Origin: Acidobacteriota bacterium
GTDB lineage: Bacteria > Acidobacteriota > Vicinamibacteria > Vicinamibacterales > UBA823
Length of the DNA: 48,464 bases
NCBI GenBank assembly: GCA_002730525.1
Contig: PCAK01000006.1
Span: 1 to 48,464, forward strand
Direction of reading: 5' to 3'
The position numbers and the translations under genes are program-made. The notes under the pieces were generated by a model that worked only from the letters and a program-made list of their open reading frames with translations, made no database searches and had not been told where the DNA came from. Below, one piece after another: positions 982-48,356 of this stretch (position 1 is its first letter; every line of letters starts with the position of its first letter).

Positions 982-1114
982 CGACCATGCAGAAGAAATC
1001 GCATGGAGGGCGACGAGGCGTAGCGCACGGACGCGGCACCTTCCACCCCGCTACCCGAAAGCAATGGAACCTCGGCCTGAGTGGACGGTCCCCGTCCCGG
1101 GCGGCTACCCGTTG

Positions 1115-1210
1115 TGTTTGGCGTCAAATGAATGGGGACCAAGTGAGGCGGTGAAATAGGAGAGACTTGGCCACCAGGGGAGGAGGTCCCCATTCATTTG
1201 ACGCCAAACA
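1115..1210. repeat. Perfect 26-bp inverted repeat with 44-bp spacer
   Basis: Positions 1115-1140 are the exact reverse complement of 1185-1210. The spacer holds a second, 6-bp stem (CCAAGT at 1139-1144 with ACTTGG at 1165-1170). The structure ends six bases from the stop codon of the GT2 gene on the minus strand, so it could end that transcript, although no T-tract follows. The length and perfection are more like a small non-autonomous mobile repeat (MITE or REP-type) than an ordinary terminator. Confidence 0.85.
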
Positions 1211-1216
1211 GACAGC

Positions 1217-1897
1217 TCAGCAGGAGAAGAATCGCAGTCGAACGAGCGTCCAGACCGCTGACACTGCATCCATCCAGGAAATCTTCTTCCCTTCCGACCG
1301 CGTGCGCGCAGCATACGCGATAGGAACTTCAACAATGGGTGTGTCTCGCATCAGAATTTTCGCCGTCAGTTCTGGCTCGACGTTGAACCGGTCTGATTCG
1401 ATTCGAAGGTCGTTGGCCACGTCTCGCCGTATCAGCTTGTAGCAGGTTTCCATGTCGGTAAGTGCTGATCCGTAGAGCAGATTGGTTAGCTTGGTCAGCG
1501 TGCGATTACCCGCCCGGTGCCGAAGTGCCATCACCGGACGCGATCCCATGAATCGGGAGCCATAGACAACGGGGGCATTCTGCCGAACGGCCGCGTCGGT
1601 CAGTTTGATGTAGTCCTCGGGGTCGTACTCCAGGTCCGCGTCTTGGATGATGACGTAGTCGCCCGTCGCCTGGGCTAATCCTGTCCGAAGCGCAGCACCT
1701 TTGCCCCTGTTCTGATCGTGAAACAAGATGGTTCGGTTCGGTCCCTTCATTGACGCCAGAAGGTCGCGGGTGCCATCGGCAGAATAGTCGTCGACAATGA
1801 TCAGTTCTTTGTCGATATCGACGGCGTCCACCTTGGCAACCAGTTCCCGGACGGTCGCTGACTCGTTGAAGACAGGGATCAATACGGAAAGGCGCAT
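1217..1897 (-). CDS. Family 2 glycosyltransferase (polyprenyl-phosphate mannosyltransferase/DPM1-like)
   Basis: The 226-residue protein opens with the GT-A signature [14 protein letters not shown], followed by [13 protein letters not shown] and the metal/nucleotide-binding [12 protein letters not shown] conserved [11 protein letters not shown] region follows. This is the usual pattern of DPM1-type enzymes that move a sugar from a nucleotide sugar to a polyprenyl phosphate or glycan on the cytoplasmic face of the membrane. It has no carboxy-terminal membrane segments, unlike the DPM1 fusions. I chose ATG 1897; a TTG at 1903 is in frame and follows the stop of the sulfotransferase gene (1904) directly. 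The pair is probably one transcript. Together with the sulfotransferase and PAPS genes it suggests that a glycan or glycolipid is built and then sulfated. Confidence 0.88.
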
Positions 1898-1903
1898 CGG
1901 CAA

Positions 1904-2518
1904 TCAGTCTCGCCGGTTCCGATACAGCTGCTGGTCGACCACGGCCGCCATAGCGCTCGCGTCGAGGCTGCCGACGAACGTGGCGATTCTCTCGGCCTGG
2001 CCCGAGGCGTCGTCGAGGACGGCCTTGTAGTCGACGTCGAGAACGTCGAAGCAGGGTCGGCGATCGAGAAGGCGCTTCGTCTTCTCGACATCCTTTTTAT
2101 AGGACGCGATGAGCGCGGCGTCATCGTCGTCTTCTCCCTGCTCCTCGCCGCGCTTGTCGAGCATCTTGCTCTGCGATGCCATGACCTCCTGCAGGGCGCG
2201 GTGCATGAAGATGACCTTGTAGTGGTGCGCGTCGGGCAGGCTGGATAGGAGGAACGAGATGATCTTGATCGCCTTGCCCCGAGTGTCAGCGAGCCAGCGC
2301 TTGTCGGGGTCCTCGTGCAGGTGCATGACCGGTTCGTACTCGTAGTAACCCTTCGGATTGTCCGAGTCGGCGGTCCGCTTGCCGTCGGTGATGATCTCGA
2401 CACCGCCGGCCTCGAGCATCTTCATCACCATCGACGTCCCGGAGCGCGGCAGGCCGGAGACGACAACAATCGGTTTTCCGAAGCGGAACCTGCGATACAG
2501 CCCAGCGAAGAGCGACAT
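1904..2518 (-). CDS. Sulfotransferase family protein
   Basis: The 204-residue protein has the PAPS 5'-phosphosulfate-binding loop SGLPRSGTS at residues 21-29, typical of bacterial sulfotransferases (Sulfotransfer_1/3 clan). A helix and the YKVIFMHRALQEVMASQ region, which in the family holds the 3'-phosphate-binding Arg/Ser, follow at mid-protein. An acidic insert (GEEQGEDDDD) lies near residue 130. It would transfer sulfate from PAPS to a hydroxyl acceptor; the acceptor cannot be read from sequence. ATG 2518 fits the start of the conserved strand; the reading frame stays open further upstream, but that part overlaps cysQ. The genes for PAPS supply begin 29 bp away on the opposite strand, which supports this function. 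Confidence 0.87.
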   Translation of the reverse strand: MSLFAGLYRRFRFGKPIVVVSGLPRSGTSMVMKMLEAGGVEIITDGKRTADSDNPKGYYEYEPVMHLHEDPDKRWLADTRGKAIKIISFLLSSLPDAHHYKVIFMHRALQEVMASQSKMLDKRGEEQGEDDDDAALIASYKKDVEKTKRLLDRRPCFDVLDVDYKAVLDDASGQAERIATFVGSLDASAMAAVVDQQLYRNRRD

Positions 2519-2547
2519 ATCCGGAGATAATAGCTCAGAAGTTCGAA
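2519..2547. promoter_or_regulatory. 29-bp divergent promoter with overlapping -10 boxes
   Basis: The whole gap between the sulfotransferase gene and cysQ is 29 bp. GATAAT (2526-2531, plus strand) and TATTAT (2532-2527, minus strand) overlap almost fully, so one symmetric AT-rich core could serve both directions. The plus ATG lies 16 bases downstream and the minus ATG 8 bases downstream. Neither side has a good -35. Confidence 0.5.
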
Positions 2548-3324
2548 ATGTTGAGCGACATCTGCACCATCGCGCGCGACGCCGGCGCCGCGATCCTCCG
2601 CTACTACAAGTCGGGCGACCTCTCGGTCGATGAGAAGGTCGACGGCACGCCGGTGACCGCGGCCGATCGTGAAGCCGACGGCCAGATCCGGACGGCACTG
2701 GCGCAACTCGACGCGTCGATCCCGTGCATCTCGGAGGAAAGCGCGGTCCCGCCCTACGAGACGCGGCGCGACTGGCGGCGGTTCTGGCTGGTGGACCCCC
2801 TGGACGGCACGAAGGAGTTCGTCCGCGGCACGGACGAGTTCACGGTCAACATCGCCCTTATCGACGACGGGATCCCGGTCCTGGGCGTCGTCTACGTGCC
2901 GCCGCTCGACGTCATGTACTACGCCGAAGCCGGCCGTGGCACCTGGAAGCAGGCCGGCGGCGCGTCGCCGAAGCAGCTCTTCTCGACCTTCCCCGACCCA
3001 ACGGGAGAACTGGTCATTGCGGAGAGCCGCTCGCATCCGAGCCCCCACATGGAGGCGTTCCTGAAGGATTATCGGGTGAAGGCGCGGGTCGCGGCCGGCA
3101 GCTCGCTGAAGTTCTGTCTGCTGGCGGAAGGCTCGGCCGATATCTACCCGCGGCTCGGCCGAACGATGGAATGGGACGTGGCGGCTGGCGACTGCGTCTA
3201 CCGCCACTCGAAACGGGACGGCACGCACCCCGTCTCGCTGCGCTATAATACCCCTCTGCTAAGACATGACGGGTTCGTGATCGGACTGGAACCCGGCACG
3301 TTCGCGCTTCCCACGTCGACTTGA
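2548..3324 (+). CDS. cysQ: 3'(2'),5'-bisphosphate nucleotidase CysQ
   Basis: CysQ is an inositol-monophosphatase-fold, Mg-dependent enzyme that hydrolyses PAP, the by-product of sulfotransferases, to AMP and phosphate, relieving product inhibition. The 258-residue length is normal for the family. The metal-binding signature is complete: EE at residues 63-64 and LVDPLDGTKEF at 81-91, plus the late EWDVAAGDCV motif (W-D-x-A-A). It is the first gene of the plus-strand group and overlaps cysC by one base (TGATG at 3322-3326). No strong Shine-Dalgarno sequence precedes ATG 2548. Its place between a sulfotransferase and PAPS-forming genes fits PAP removal. Confidence 0.93.
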   Translation: MLSDICTIARDAGAAILRYYKSGDLSVDEKVDGTPVTAADREADGQIRTALAQLDASIPCISEESAVPPYETRRDWRRFWLVDPLDGTKEFVRGTDEFTVNIALIDDGIPVLGVVYVPPLDVMYYAEAGRGTWKQAGGASPKQLFSTFPDPTGELVIAESRSHPSPHMEAFLKDYRVKARVAAGSSLKFCLLAEGSADIYPRLGRTMEWDVAAGDCVYRHSKRDGTHPVSLRYNTPLLRHDGFVIGLEPGTFALPTST

Positions 3325-4067
3325 TGTTCGTCCAGACGCCGCCGTCGCGCTCCCGAGCCATCTCCTGGCGTGTTGTCGCGACCGTGAGTACCGCCGCGCT
3401 CGTCTACGTCCTGACCCGCGATGTCGGCCTGTCGGTCGCGGTCGGCGCGCTGGACGCAATCGTCAAGATCGTCCTCTGGCCGCTGCACGAGCGCGCCTGG
3501 TCAAAACGATCACTGTCGACCCCGGCAGCCGCACCCGGCCACACGCCGGCAGTCCTCTGGTTCACCGGTCTGTCGGGCTCGGGCAAGAGCACGATCGCGC
3601 AGCGGATTTACAGCGACCTCGAGCGCCGGGGCCACAAGGTGGAGTACCTCGACGGCGACAGGATCCGCGACATCTTTCCGACAACCGGCTTCTCGAAGGC
3701 CGAGCGCGACCTGCACGTGAAGCGGGTCGGCCATCTGGCGAGCACGCTCGAGCGGAACGGCGTGCTGGTCATCGCGGCGTTCATCTCGCCCTATGCCGAG
3801 ACGCGCGACTTCGTCCGCGGGCTGTGCGACCGGTTCGTCGAGATCTTCGTCTCGACGCCGCTCGCGGTCTGCGAGAAGCGCGACGTGAAGGGGCTCTACG
3901 CGAAGGCGCGCCGCGGCGAGATCACACAGTTCACCGGGATCGACGATCCCTACGAAGCGCCGACCCGTGCCGAGATCACGATCGACACGTCGCGCGTGTC
4001 GCTCGACGAGGCCACCGACCAGGTGACCGAGTATCTCGAACGGCACGCGCTGGGCGCGGCAGGTTGA
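3324..4067 (+). CDS. cysC: Membrane-anchored adenylylsulfate kinase (DUF2061-CysC fusion)
   Basis: The carboxy-terminal about 180 residues form an APS kinase, which phosphorylates APS to PAPS. It has an intact Walker [10 protein letters not shown], the YLDGDRIRD motif, and the [10 protein letters not shown] and [12 protein letters not shown] segments. The first about 60 residues ([19 protein letters not shown] and onward, to [12 protein letters not shown]) match the small DUF2061 membrane domain, with two short hydrophobic segments. The fusion should hold PAPS production at the inner membrane, plausibly close to a membrane-associated sulfotransferase. ATG 3324 overlaps the cysQ stop; a TTG at 3321 is also in frame. 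The stop at 4065 lay two bases before the cysD start before the repeat inserted. Confidence 0.92.
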
Positions 4068-43330: not shown

Positions 43331-44101
43331 GTGAGCCGAGCCGCCACGCTCGGCCTGTTGGTCGCCACCTACGTCGTGGTCTCGGTCGTGGCCTACACCG
43401 ACTTCCCGCGGCGAACATCCGTACAACCTCTGACCGAGATCGAGCACGAGGGCCTTCTCGTCTGGCGCCGGCACAACTGCCAGGCGTGCCATCAGATCTT
43501 CGGGTACGGCGGCTTCCTCGGGCCCGATCTGACGAACCGCGTCGGTAATGAGACCGCGACTGACGCGCTGCGCCCCATGCTCACGCGGGGATCGGGTCGG
43601 ATGCCCGCCCTGGATCTGCCGATCTCCGAACAGGACGCCGTCCTTGCCTACCTGCGGAGGCTCAACAGGTCTGGACGATCGCAGCCCGTCCCGCTCGGCG
43701 CCGGGCAGACTGCGGACCCGGTGGACCACTTCCAACAGATCACGACGGCCTGGATCCGAGAGGACGGCCGCGATGTGGCCCCGGCGGTCCGTCGGGGCAG
43801 CGAAGTGTGGGGTCTCCAGCGGTGCGGCACCTGCCATCTTCCGTTCGATGTGGGTCCGGTGCTGTCGCCAGATCTGTCCGGAGCGGCCGTGGATACGTCG
43901 GTGGCCCGACTCCACGATCTGCTGGACCGCGGGAAAGGCCGGATGCCCTCGTTTCGCCTGACGCGAGAGGAGACCGTCGATCTGAGTGCCTACCTGGCGT
44001 GGGTCTCCACCCACCGAGCCGACCTGGTGATGCTCAACGATCGGATGCTGGACCGCGAGCCGTTTTCGTGGACGGAGGTGCCATGGTTCGAGTACCGGTG
44101 A
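43331..44101 (+). CDS. Membrane-anchored dihaem cytochrome c, NorC-like
   Basis: The 256-residue protein has one amino-terminal hydrophobic anchor (residues 5-22) and two c-haem sites: CQACH (Cys50-His54) and CGTCH (Cys165-His169), each followed by a likely Met ligand in GRMPA (Met91) and GRMPS (Met205). The first domain (GLLVWRRHNCQACHQIFGYGG, LGPDLTNR) is close in pattern to NorC, the electron-entry subunit of nitric oxide reductase; the second domain is extra, since NorC has one haem. GTG 43331 is the start. It overlaps the NorB-like gene by 19 bases. Confidence 0.9.
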   Translation: MSRAATLGLLVATYVVVSVVAYTDFPRRTSVQPLTEIEHEGLLVWRRHNCQACHQIFGYGGFLGPDLTNRVGNETATDALRPMLTRGSGRMPALDLPISEQDAVLAYLRRLNRSGRSQPVPLGAGQTADPVDHFQQITTAWIREDGRDVAPAVRRGSEVWGLQRCGTCHLPFDVGPVLSPDLSGAAVDTSVARLHDLLDRGKGRMPSFRLTREETVDLSAYLAWVSTHRADLVMLNDRMLDREPFSWTEVPWFEYR

Positions 44102-45471
44102 GCGAGGCCACCACCGCGTCTCGGGCGTTCGTCTGGATGGCCCTGCTGGCCCTCGGAGCCTGCGCCGTCACGATAGTCAGCGGAACGCTCGCGGCGCTGA
44201 CCTACACCGATTCAGAGCTGGTGCTGCGATCGGCCCAGCTCACCCTGCAGCAGCTCCGACCGGTGCACGAGACGTTCGCATTCGCCTGGGTGTTCCTGGG
44301 CGGCGTCGCGATCGTCTACTTCTATCTGCACCACACGTTCGGCCCCCCGTCAGCAGCGATGCGACGACGCACCGTCTGGCAGATCGTGCTCTGGACGGTC
44401 GCCGGCCTGGGCATCCTGGTGACGCTCCTCTCGGGGCGGTTCACCGGGCGGGAGTACCTCGGCTACCACCCCGCCTTTTCCGTCCTCATCCTGGCGGGAT
44501 GGCTCCTGTTTGCGTGGAACTTCTTCGAGCAGAGCGGGATCTCGCTCTCGAACCGCCCCGCCTACATCTACATGTGGTCGATCGCCATTCCGCTCTTCGT
44601 CATCACCTACCTCGAGGGGCACCTGTATCTGTTCGACGTCGTGAGTGGGCGGCCGGTACGCGACATCGCGATTCAGTGGAAGGCCAACGGCACGCTCGTC
44701 GGGTCGTTCAACCTGCTCGCCTACGGATCGCTGATGTGGGTCTCCGGGCGCATCCGCGGGGACGACGGCTACGCCCATTCTCGGACGGCGTTCGCGCTCC
44801 TGTTCGTCGGCGTGCTGAACACGTTCACGAACTACGGGCACCACACCTACCACCTGCCTCAGACGGCCTGGATCCACTGGATCAGCTTCGTCATCAGCAT
44901 GCTCGAGGTAATCATCCTCGCCAAGGTGTTCCTGGACGTGCTGGCCCTGCTGTGGACGGCTTCGGATCCCCAGGCCCACCGTGTCTCGCAGTGGTTCATT
45001 CGCTCCGCGACGATGTGGACGTTCGTGATGACCGCGGTCGCGATAGCCCTGGCGGTCCCGCCCCTGAATACGCTGATCCACGGCACCCACGTGGTCGTGG
45101 CGCATTCGATGGGAAGCATGCTCGGCATCGACTCGATGATCCTGTGGGCGGCGCTCGCCTACGGCCTCGAGGCCGTCCTGGGCTCGCAACATCCGGTGGT
45201 GTGCGGGCGTCGCGTCCGCCTCGCGGCACCGCTCCTCAGCCTCTTCCTCTTCGTCTTCTTGCTCTCTTACCTCGCCCGCGGTGCTGCGGCGGGGTGGGCG
45301 CGCTATGTCGGCCCCTCTGCTCCGGACTTCTCGTGGCTGATCGCGGTATTTCCCGGCGTCATGGCGCTGTCCGGCATCGGGCTGGCCGTGACGGTCCTAT
45401 GGATCGTGGCCCAGTGGATGGTCGCGCTTTGGTCGGCGATGAGGCCGACACACAAGGAAGGTTGCAGGTGA
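44083..45471 (+). CDS. NorB-like haem-copper oxidase superfamily subunit with altered ligand positions
   Basis: The 462-residue protein has about twelve helices. PVHETFAFAWVFLGG (His62) matches the low-spin haem ligand helix of NorB; YGHHTYHLPQTAWIHWIS (His253, His254) matches the two-histidine metal site and SMLEVI its follow-up; HGTHVVVAHSMGSMLG (His341) matches the HGTx..AHGHM helix. Two differences stand out: the second His of AHGH, the partner low-spin haem ligand, is Met343, and the first active-site His of the VHLWVEG helix is replaced (VITYLEGH), leaving Ile174 there, Glu178 kept and His180 nearby. ATG 44083 has GGAGGTG. Activity may be NO reduction, oxygen reduction or something else. 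Confidence 0.88.
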   Translation: MVRVPVSEATTASRAFVWMALLALGACAVTIVSGTLAALTYTDSELVLRSAQLTLQQLRPVHETFAFAWVFLGGVAIVYFYLHHTFGPPSAAMRRRTVWQIVLWTVAGLGILVTLLSGRFTGREYLGYHPAFSVLILAGWLLFAWNFFEQSGISLSNRPAYIYMWSIAIPLFVITYLEGHLYLFDVVSGRPVRDIAIQWKANGTLVGSFNLLAYGSLMWVSGRIRGDDGYAHSRTAFALLFVGVLNTFTNYGHHTYHLPQTAWIHWISFVISMLEVIILAKVFLDVLALLWTASDPQAHRVSQWFIRSATMWTFVMTAVAIALAVPPLNTLIHGTHVVVAHSMGSMLGIDSMILWAALAYGLEAVLGSQHPVVCGRRVRLAAPLLSLFLFVFLLSYLARGAAAGWARYVGPSAPDFSWLIAVFPGVMALSGIGLAVTVLWIVAQWMVALWSAMRPTHKEGCR

Positions 45472-46427
45472 TGATGAAGCTGACGCAGCTCGGAATCGTT
45501 GGGGCGCTCGTGGGGGTTCTGCTCCTGTCCATGCCAGGCTGTGGAGACCCGCCGGAACCCGCGATCGAAGAACCGACTGGATCGATGACGACCGCCGCCG
45601 CCCTGACCGACGCCGTTGCCGCAAACCCACTCCCCGACTTTTCCGAGTGGTGGCCGATCGGTGACGAGTTTGCCACGCTCATGTCAGACGCGATCGTCTC
45701 GGAGTGGACGGCGTTGGCCGGCAATGCTGGCGGGTTCGAGACGGTCAGCGATCACGCGACGGAGTATCTCGACATCGTCTATCAGCGTGATGCCCCAACG
45801 TCGCTCGTCCAGGACTTCGCCGCCAAGGCGTTCTCGACGCCGCTCGAGTCGGGTGAATTCGACGCGCTGTCGTACGCCTTCTATCGCTCGGCGTTCGACC
45901 TGATCGAAGCCAACCTGGACGCCTACGAGGAGCCGCTCGAGGCCGAGCGGCGAAACTTCACGCGCCGCGTCGGGCAGCGTGCGTTCGCGACGCTCGAAGA
46001 TCGGCTCGGCCTGGAGCTGCCGGCAGGTCTCGACGACCAGGTAAGTTTTGAGATACTGAGGGCCGCGATCGATTCCATCACGACCTTCCTGAAGCAGGAT
46101 GGGTACTTCCGGGACCACGGCGCCTTCGTCTTCGACGTCGATGTCGAACACCAGGGGCAACGGCTAGGCCAGCCCGACGCGGAGTTCGTCGACCGCCTTC
46201 AGACGGCCGGCGTTGCCCACGCACTCTTCGAGATGGGCTATCCGGTCATCCTGCCGTCAGCCGTGTACCTGTTCGCCACGGTCGGGGAAGCGCAGCATCA
46301 TTCCTCGCGGACTGTCGAGGAGCTCTTCGCTCGAGTCGGCTACGTCGCCAGCGAGACGCACGACTTCGATCCGAGCGGCTACCCGCCGGACATGGTCGTG
46401 GAACTGTGGGAGGTCAGGAGGCGCTGA
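45471..46427 (+). CDS. Lipoprotein coupled to the NorCB-like pair
   Basis: The 318-residue protein starts at ATG 45471, overlapping the NorB-like stop by one base. It has a lipoprotein signal (LLLSMPGC, Cys24) and a helical, acidic body (SEWWPIGDEF, FRSAFDL-like helices, TFLKQDGYFRDHGAF). There is no CxxCH or recognisable metal motif, though several histidines cluster near GEAQHHSS. I do not recognise the family. Tight coupling suggests it is an assembly or accessory subunit on the periplasmic side. Confidence 0.8.
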   Translation: MMKLTQLGIVGALVGVLLLSMPGCGDPPEPAIEEPTGSMTTAAALTDAVAANPLPDFSEWWPIGDEFATLMSDAIVSEWTALAGNAGGFETVSDHATEYLDIVYQRDAPTSLVQDFAAKAFSTPLESGEFDALSYAFYRSAFDLIEANLDAYEEPLEAERRNFTRRVGQRAFATLEDRLGLELPAGLDDQVSFEILRAAIDSITTFLKQDGYFRDHGAFVFDVDVEHQGQRLGQPDAEFVDRLQTAGVAHALFEMGYPVILPSAVYLFATVGEAQHHSSRTVEELFARVGYVASETHDFDPSGYPPDMVVELWEVRRR

Positions 46428-46495: not shown

Positions 46496-46571
46496 TGGTG
46501 GACCAGACGGGGTTCGAACCCGTGACCTCGTGAATGCCATTCACGCGCGCTCCCAGCTGCGCCACTGGCCC
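46496..46571 (-). tRNA. tRNA-Ala(GGC)
   Basis: The minus strand folds into a 76-base cloverleaf: acceptor GGGCCAG/CTGGTCC with the alanine identity pair G3-U70, anticodon stem CGTGA/TCACG with loop ATGGCAT (anticodon GGC), T loop TTCGAAC and encoded CCA at 46498-46496. Confidence 0.97.
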
Positions 46572-46623: not shown

Positions 46624-47244
46624 TCAACGGACCCGGTCCGCGAACGGCCACGGCCCGATCAGTCGTGCGTAGTCCTCGGGCGTGTCGATGTCGGTGAACG
46701 CGCCGGGATCGTCGATCGCCACGTTGACGATCGACGCCTCGTGGGCGCGGATGACCGCCTTTGTCCCCACGGTCTCGTCGGCGCCGCGCAGGTCATCGAA
46801 CATCGCTCGACCGAAGGCGACCGGATGCCCGTGGGTGTCGCCTGAGGCGGGCCGGACGATCGGCCCCTCGCCCGCCCGGAAGACCTCGAGGACCCGTCGC
46901 ACCGTCTCCGGACTCACCAGCGGCGCATCGACCAGCGTGACCAGCATCCCGGTCACGCCGGGCCGGTCGACGGCGCCGAGCGCCGCGTGCAGCGACGACA
47001 GCTGGCCCCGCTCGGGATGTGGATTCACGACCAGGCGCGGCGGGCGCGAGCAGTGTTCGAGCGCCGGCGCGACGTCGCCTGAGAGCGCCGAGACCACGAC
47101 CACGACATCGTCGACGCCGCCGCTCCAGAACGCCTCTACGAGCTGTGAGAGAAACGTCTGGCCCGTCGCGCCGATCGGCAGGAGGGCCTTCGATCGTCCC
47201 ATCCGAGAGGAGGCGCCGGCCGCCAGAACGACACCGGGGATCAT
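46624..47244 (-). CDS. MobA/MocA-like nucleotidyltransferase
   Basis: The 206-residue protein has the nucleotide-binding signature GVVLAAGASSRMGRSKALLPI at its start, a VTLVDAPLVSPETV segment with the metal aspartate, and a GHPVAFGRAMFDDL region. This is the NTP_transf_3 pattern of MobA/MocA-type enzymes, which add GMP or CMP to molybdopterin; related members act on sugar phosphates. No molybdoenzyme genes are present here, so the exact role stays open. ATG 47244 has GGAGGCG upstream; GTG 47268 is in frame. Confidence 0.87.
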   Translation of the reverse strand: MIPGVVLAAGASSRMGRSKALLPIGATGQTFLSQLVEAFWSGGVDDVVVVVSALSGDVAPALEHCSRPPRLVVNPHPERGQLSSLHAALGAVDRPGVTGMLVTLVDAPLVSPETVRRVLEVFRAGEGPIVRPASGDTHGHPVAFGRAMFDDLRGADETVGTKAVIRAHEASIVNVAIDDPGAFTDIDTPEDYARLIGPWPFADRVR

Positions 47245-47338
47245 CCGAGCCGCCTCCGTGCCAACCACCGCGGATAGAACCGACCCATCGGGCCAGTCTA
47301 GCAGCCCCTCAGGGCCGCTCCGGTCGCCGGCGCCGTGC

Positions 47339-48260: not shown

Positions 48261-48356
48261 GGAAGCGAACGGGGCCCGGTGGCCCTCCCGGTCTTCAAAA
48301 TCGGTCGCTCCCCGCTCTGCGGGGGGGCTGGGTTCGACTCCCAGGCGCTTCCGCCA
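48261..48356 (+). tRNA. selC: tRNA-Sec(UCA)
   Basis: A 96-base tRNA with the long acceptor/T-arm geometry of selC: acceptor GGAAGCG pairs with CGCTTCC, the anticodon stem CCGGT/ATCGG encloses loop CTTCAAA (anticodon UCA, reading UGA), and there is a long GC-rich variable arm. The T arm is CTGGG/CCCAG with loop TTCGACT, discriminator G, CCA encoded (48354-48356). It implies the genome makes selenoproteins; selA, selB and selD are not in the window. Confidence 0.97.

What the first reader, a model, noticed from the sequence alone, without database searches (positions are those of the whole stretch)
43331..46427. NorC/NorB-like/lipoprotein operon with altered haem ligands
The catalytic subunit resembles NorB in several helices but has Met343 where the second low-spin haem histidine should be, and lacks the first active-site histidine (Ile174; His180 two residues after Glu178). 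Its electron donor has two c haems, and a coupled unknown lipoprotein is third. This could be an undescribed branch of the haem-copper oxidase superfamily with His/Met haem coordination and a changed metal site.
Basis: partly seen in the sequence, partly recalled or inferred. Interest (0 to 1): 0.75.

Follow-up and report, generated by a model that had tools for sequence, protein, structure and literature searches.

The report
Divergent NOR-like haem enzyme, altered ligands
Two related Acidobacteriota carry a respiratory haem enzyme, related to nitric oxide reductases and oxygen reductases, that has lost two of the six histidines which hold the metals in those enzymes; it pairs with a NorC-type cytochrome and is the only nitric-oxide-reductase-like enzyme found in a genome that also encodes nitrous oxide reductase, but what it does is untested.

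Summary
The operon is real: a diheme NorC-type cytochrome (43331-44101), a haem-copper oxidoreductase (HCO) subunit I (44098-45471) and a lipoprotein-like protein (45471-46427), with overlapping genes. The catalytic subunit keeps H57, H248/H249 and H336. M338 replaces the second low-spin-haem histidine. I169/E173/H175 lie at the end of helix V. The helix VI to HH spacing (51 in every NOR tested, 50 in every C-type) puts N197 or G198 at the histidine position, and both catalytic NOR glutamates are lost. One NOR-only glutamate remains (E270 = Glu280). The protein sits on a very long branch between C-type oxidases and cNOR+qNOR, and placement with cNOR is rejected (AU p 0.001). Its donor is NorC by sequence; diheme NorC is ordinary. 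Only one other species, of the same genus, has it (88% identical, dN/dS 0.30); there a permease gene separates the lipoprotein gene. The genome has clade I NosZ and no recognised NOR or NirK. Best reading: a NOR-related enzyme, possibly reducing NO to N2O, with an incomplete metal site. Activity is unproven, and relatives outside Acidobacteriota could hardly be searched.

The parts
43331..44101 (+). Membrane-anchored diheme cytochrome c, NorC-type (P0003, 256 aa): N-terminal TM helix, two NorC-like haem domains (CQACH 50-54, CGTCH 165-169)
   Evidence: Only PDB sequence matches are NorC chains 3o0r_C (4.3e-9) and 4xyd_B (4.3e-7); hhalign to the NorC set 98.8% / 8.2e-17; Pfam Cytochrome_CBB3
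44098..45471 (+). HCO subunit I (P0001, 457 aa, GTG start; an ATG at 44083 is also possible). Candidate ligands kept: H57, H248, H249, H336. Replaced: helix VI His by N197 or G198; low-spin His by M338. NOR helix VIII Glu kept as E270
   Evidence: Pfam COX1 64 bits; alignments; spacing tables; trees; ortholog in UBA2161
45471..46427 (+). Secreted, probable lipoprotein of unknown family (P0002, 318 aa, lipobox-like MPGC at 21-24)
   Evidence: No Pfam or NCBIfam match; no significant PDB match; in the order, found only in the two genus members
44602..44625 (+).
   Evidence: hhalign to C-type; 79 residues from HH instead of 50-51
44674..44712 (+). Helix VI motif Q193-N205 (QWKANGTLVGSFN), where C-type has WFYGHN and NOR has WWVVHLWVEG
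45103..45111 (+). Helix X motif H336-S337-M338 in place of H-x-H

Best explanation
A divergent HCO of the side of the superfamily that holds C-type oxygen reductases and cNOR/qNOR, working with a diheme NorC-type cytochrome. Proposed mechanism: electrons enter through the two c haems of the NorC-like subunit and pass to a low-spin haem b held by H57 and probably M338. From there they pass to a high-spin haem b held by H336. That haem faces a second-metal site built from H248 and H249 only, perhaps with N197 and E270. The most likely substrate is NO, reduced to N2O at modest rate for detoxification or respiration, with the N2O passed to the cell's own NosZ. Shown by sequence: gene order, NorC identity of the donor, HCO fold family, loss of two of six histidines and of both helix-VI glutamates, retention of the NOR helix-VIII glutamate, purifying selection, presence of a nos cluster and absence of another recognised NOR. 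Inferred: haem binding, His/Met ligation, the metal bound, NO as substrate, direction of electron flow.
For: Donor is NorC by sequence. NOR hallmarks in the catalytic subunit: 'SxLE' helix VIII with E270 at HH+22, as in every NOR and no C-type tested, equal to NmqNOR His541+22 = Glu563 (PMC7201271), in the position of PaNOR Glu280 by the same motif; and 'HGT' before helix X. Tree: the pair joins between C-type and cNOR+qNOR. The only HCOs found in the genome are an aa3-type oxidase and this one. The genome has TAT-type NosZ (TIGR04244, 807 bits over cut-off 625) with NosR, NosD, NosF and NosY. dN/dS is 0.20 for the cytochrome, 0.30 for the HCO subunit, 0.25 for the lipoprotein.
Against: The helix VI histidine and both helix VI glutamates (NmqNOR Glu494 and Glu498) are missing; change of Glu498 costs over 90% of activity in qNOR (PMC7201271). 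NorQ, which with NorD inserts FeB in cNOR (PMC9976466 abstract), is absent. No nitrite reductase was recognised, so no internal NO source is known. P0001 has no PDB sequence match, no usable model was obtained, and the branch is extremely long, so its placement is fragile.
Confidence: 0.4

Rival explanations
1. Non-catalytic descendant: a membrane haem protein of HCO origin used for electron transfer (diheme c to haem b) or for NO/O2 sensing with the lipoprotein, without turnover.
For: Two of six histidines, both helix VI Glu and the C-type helix VII Tyr (T242/N241 here) are gone. No NorQ. Very long branch (3.6-3.7 changes per site).
Against: HH248/249, H336, H57 and E270 are all kept in both species. 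An electron-transfer role would not obviously need the HH pair.
Confidence: 0.3
2. NO dismutase-like or other unusual NO/O2 chemistry: Asn in place of an active-site histidine recalls putative NODs, where one coordinating His is Asn and a nearby Glu is Gln.
For: N197 lies at the helix VI His position by NOR spacing. NOD substitution described in PMC3413370.
Against: Not a qNOR relative. A cytochrome c donor is present, whereas NODs are said to take no external electrons. By C-type register the residue is G198. The low-spin ligand is also changed, which is not described for NOD. Which histidine changes in NOD was not checked here.
Confidence: 0.07
3. Ordinary decay: a former NOR or C-type oxidase drifting to loss of function.
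For: dN/dS of 0.30 is the highest of four local genes. Sister species lost the linkage to the lipoprotein gene.
Against: All three genes are intact in two species, with dN about a third or less of dS; every proposed ligand is identical.
Confidence: 0.13
4. One reading: first active-site His lost at I174, with E178 kept and H180 as substitute ligand.
For: 'LEGH' superficially resembles 'HLWVEG'.
Against: 79 residues to HH instead of 50-51; hhalign places it at the end of helix V.
Confidence: 0.03

Closest known systems
cNOR (NorB with NorC), e.g. PDB 3o0r, 4xyd
   Same: NorC-type haem c subunit directly upstream; helix VIII SxLE glutamate; HGT motif; HH pair; proximal His
   Different: about 20-23% identity; His207-, Glu211- and Glu215-equivalents and the second low-spin His lost; no NorQ in the genome; outside the clade (AU p 0.0014)
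C-type (cbb3) oxygen reductase subunit I
   Same: Best HMM-HMM match (98%, 2.4e-13); 'LRPxH' helix II; 'LVG' helix VI pattern
   Different: Helix VI His to G198; helix VII Tyr absent; H-x-M; NorC-type partner rather than CcoO/CcoP
qNOR
   Same: Helix VIII Glu, HGT, HH
   Different: No fused N-terminal cytochrome-like domain; helix VI His/Glu/Glu missing; two-subunit organisation
NO dismutase (Methylomirabilis-type NOD)
   Same: A coordinating histidine apparently replaced by Asn and the catalytic Glu lost
   Different: NOD is a qNOR relative without an external electron donor; this has NorC and also H-x-M
bNOR, sNOR, eNOR, gNOR, nNOR
   Same: HCO superfamily members with altered active-site residues
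   Different: Literature places them with B-family oxidases (PMC11388526), and sNOR, gNOR, eNOR with cupredoxin second subunits (PMC8756737); not aligned here

Membership tests
Haem-copper oxidoreductase superfamily | COX1 fold family | tested here: met
   Pfam PF00115 64 bits over the 34.8 cut-off
Haem-copper oxidoreductase superfamily | Six conserved histidines (two low-spin haem, one high-spin haem, three second metal) | tested here: not met
   Four of six by alignment: H57, H248, H249, H336; helix VI His is N197/G198, low-spin His is M338
cNOR | NorC-type haem c subunit encoded with NorB | tested here: met
cNOR | Helix VI His and Glu at FeB, plus the second helix VI Glu | tested here: not met
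   -51 N, -47 V, -43 N against H, E, E in all NORs
cNOR | Helix VIII Glu (PaNOR Glu280) | tested here: met
   E270 at HH+22
cNOR | Falls within the cNOR clade | tested here: not met
   Grouping with cNOR rejected, AU p 0.0014; long-branch caveat
cNOR | NorQ (FeB insertion) in the genome | tested here: not met
   PF08406: no match in either genome
qNOR | Fused N-terminal cytochrome-like domain | tested here: not met
   457 aa, begins at helix I; PF22085 not matched
C-type oxygen reductase | Helix VII Tyr and helix VI His | tested here: not met
   T242/N241 at the Tyr position; G198 at the His position
C-type oxygen reductase | Groups with C-type clade | tested here: not met
   The 11 C-type rows form their own group (100/98); joining with the cbb3-like subset disfavoured, p 0.035
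NO reductase (activity) | Reduces NO to N2O | not testable with these tools
   needs enzyme assay
sNOR/eNOR/gNOR/nNOR/bNOR | Clade membership with B-family-related NORs | not tested
   reference sequences not retrievable here; NorC partner argues against

The most novel reading that the evidence does not exclude
A third lineage on the C-type/NOR side of the HCO superfamily, keeping a mixture of C-type (helix VI) and NOR (helices VIII and X) features, with a His/Met low-spin haem b and a two-histidine (plus Asn/Glu) second-metal site that still turns over NO.
Probability: 0.22. Interest if true: 0.8.

Novelty: new variant of a known kind. Interest (0 to 1): 0.55.

Why it matters
The histidine sextet is treated as the signature of the superfamily and is used to filter genomic NOR calls. 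A conserved, selected member with two of six replaced, including the low-spin haem ligand, would show that the scaffold tolerates other ligands and would affect N2O budgets inferred from genomes: this NosZ-bearing genome would be scored as having no NOR. If it is a C-type/NOR intermediate, it bears on how NO and O2 reduction diverged.

Tried and rejected
AlphaFold on the HCO subunit (two sequences, pLDDT 41) and on the lipoprotein (pLDDT 40): unusable, so no fold search was run. Genome-contig scan: returned only UBA2161, because it used two exact 7-residue patterns. Viral-contig scans for more homologues: one ordinary NorB locus (L057). NirS candidate from PF02239: a beta-propeller protein with one CXXCH, matched over 120 of 368 positions only, not NirS. 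FNR-like palindrome TTGAT-N4-ATCAA with up to one mismatch: none in the window. Literature searches for a natural HCO with a Met low-spin ligand found none, in an open-licence library only. Murali et al. 2024 (PNAS) could not be read.

Full report
WHAT IS THERE. The window is contig 6 of an Acidobacteriota genome (3.31 Mb, 45 contigs); its nearest relative with a name is Acidobacteria bacterium UBA2161. Three overlapping genes run on the + strand: a 256-aa cytochrome with two CXXCH motifs, a 457-aa membrane protein and a 318-aa secreted protein with a lipobox-like MPGC.

THE CYTOCHROME IS NorC. Its only PDB sequence matches are NorC of Pseudomonas aeruginosa cNOR (3o0r_C, 4.3e-9) and a NorC-like protein (4xyd_B). 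hhalign to nine NorC proteins gives 98.8%, and the second haem domain also matches NorC (33% to R. etli NorC over 99 residues). Diheme NorC is not remarkable: five Acidobacteriota cNOR loci and Eleftheria also have it.

THE CATALYTIC SUBUNIT. Pfam COX1 matches at 64 bits, no NCBIfam model matches, and no PDB sequence matches even at E 1-10. Against three profile sets, the best HMM-HMM match is C-type oxidase (98.0%, 2.4e-13), then cNOR (95.9%, 5.3e-9), then qNOR (60%, 8.6e-5). H57 (LRPVH), H248-H249 and H336 align with conserved histidines; M338 aligns with the second low-spin histidine.

THE HELIX VI REGISTER. In 15 NORs the spacing from that histidine to the helix VII HH is always 51; in six C-type proteins it is 50; tryptophan stands at -4 in all. 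In NmqNOR it is His490 to His541 (PMC7201271). From H248, those spacings give N197 and G198; I169 would be 79. hhalign places 'ITYLEGHLYLF' at the end of helix V and 'IQWKANGTLVGSF' on 'ANWFYGHNILGLW'. So the histidine is absent, replaced by N197 (NOR spacing) or G198 (C-type spacing, W at -4), and the helix VI glutamates are V201/G202 and N205/L206. In contrast, E270 stands at HH+22, where every NOR tested has Glu and every C-type Leu; by motif it corresponds to PaNOR Glu280, which is critical for activity (PMC3431322).

PLACEMENT. ML trees (LG+C20) put the two orthologs alone on a branch of 3.6-3.7 changes per site, between C-type oxidases and cNOR+qNOR. Holding them with cNOR is rejected (AU p 0.0014), with the cbb3-like subset p 0.035. 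Long branches make this provisional. Relatives in other phyla were out of reach, so how isolated the lineage is remains open.

DISTRIBUTION AND SELECTION. Ortholog searches found only one other genome, of the same genus, in 297 and 396 sampled genomes of the phylum (overlapping samples) and 162 of the order. Identity is 88%. dN/dS is 0.30 (HCO), 0.20 (cytochrome), 0.25 (lipoprotein) and 0.16 (upstream asparaginase), so the genes are under purifying selection. In UBA2161 about 2.6 kb with an opposite-strand permease gene separates HCO and lipoprotein genes; the lipoprotein is otherwise known only from these two species.

PHYSIOLOGY. The only other HCO in the genome is an aa3-type oxidase. Both genomes have NosZ. 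In the window's genome it is TAT-type NosZ (807 bits, cut-off 625) with NosR, NosD and ABC genes placed as NosF and NosY. NirK is below cut-off, the cd1 hit is not NirS and NorQ is absent. So this operon is the only NOR candidate in an N2O reducer, which is circumstantial support for NO chemistry.

INTERPRETATION. The retained HH pair, proximal histidine and helix VIII Glu, the NorC partner and purifying selection argue for a working redox complex with NO as the likeliest substrate. Loss of the third metal ligand and both helix VI glutamates argues against normal NOR catalysis. His/Met ligation of the low-spin haem is a prediction, not a result. None of the five other NOR families could be aligned here; published descriptions tie them to B-family oxidases (PMC11388526), and sNOR, gNOR and eNOR to cupredoxin subunits (PMC8756737), unlike this operon. 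In putative NODs one coordinating histidine is Asn and a glutamate Gln (PMC3413370); the parallel is suggestive only.

VERDICT. A real, conserved, strongly divergent HCO variant. The Met finding stands, the active-site reading is corrected, the lipoprotein and diheme claims are weaker than stated, and the function is open.

Noticed in passing
L065 6898-15215 (G000:C43 about 70.9-79.2 kb): nos cluster: diheme cytochrome c, TAT-type (clade I) NosZ, an ORF matching NosR then NosD in one frame (possible fusion), NosF/NosY-like ABC genes, in a genome without recognised NirK, NirS or NOR.
   Followed up: partly
L009 about 1085-3694 (G245:C36): In UBA2161 an opposite-strand FtsX-like permease gene lies between the HCO and lipoprotein genes, although the flanks remain syntenic with the window.
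   Followed up: partly
window 48261-48356: ARAGORN calls a selenocysteine tRNA (tca anticodon) near the window end; whether the genome has selenoproteins was not examined.
   Followed up: no
window 46496-46571: tRNA-Ala(ggc) on the minus strand directly downstream of the operon; a MocA/MobA-like nucleotidyltransferase follows at 46624-47268.
   Followed up: no
L066 1503-3008 (G000:C42 about 48.0-49.5 kb): Beta-propeller protein with one C-terminal CXXCH that partly matches Cytochrom_D1; could be misannotated as NirS.
   Followed up: partly
L005, L053, L054: A group of C-type-like oxidases in other Acidobacteriota with 'SKTDWI.GHAH' instead of the usual 'HFT.WVVGHAH' in helix X.
   Followed up: no
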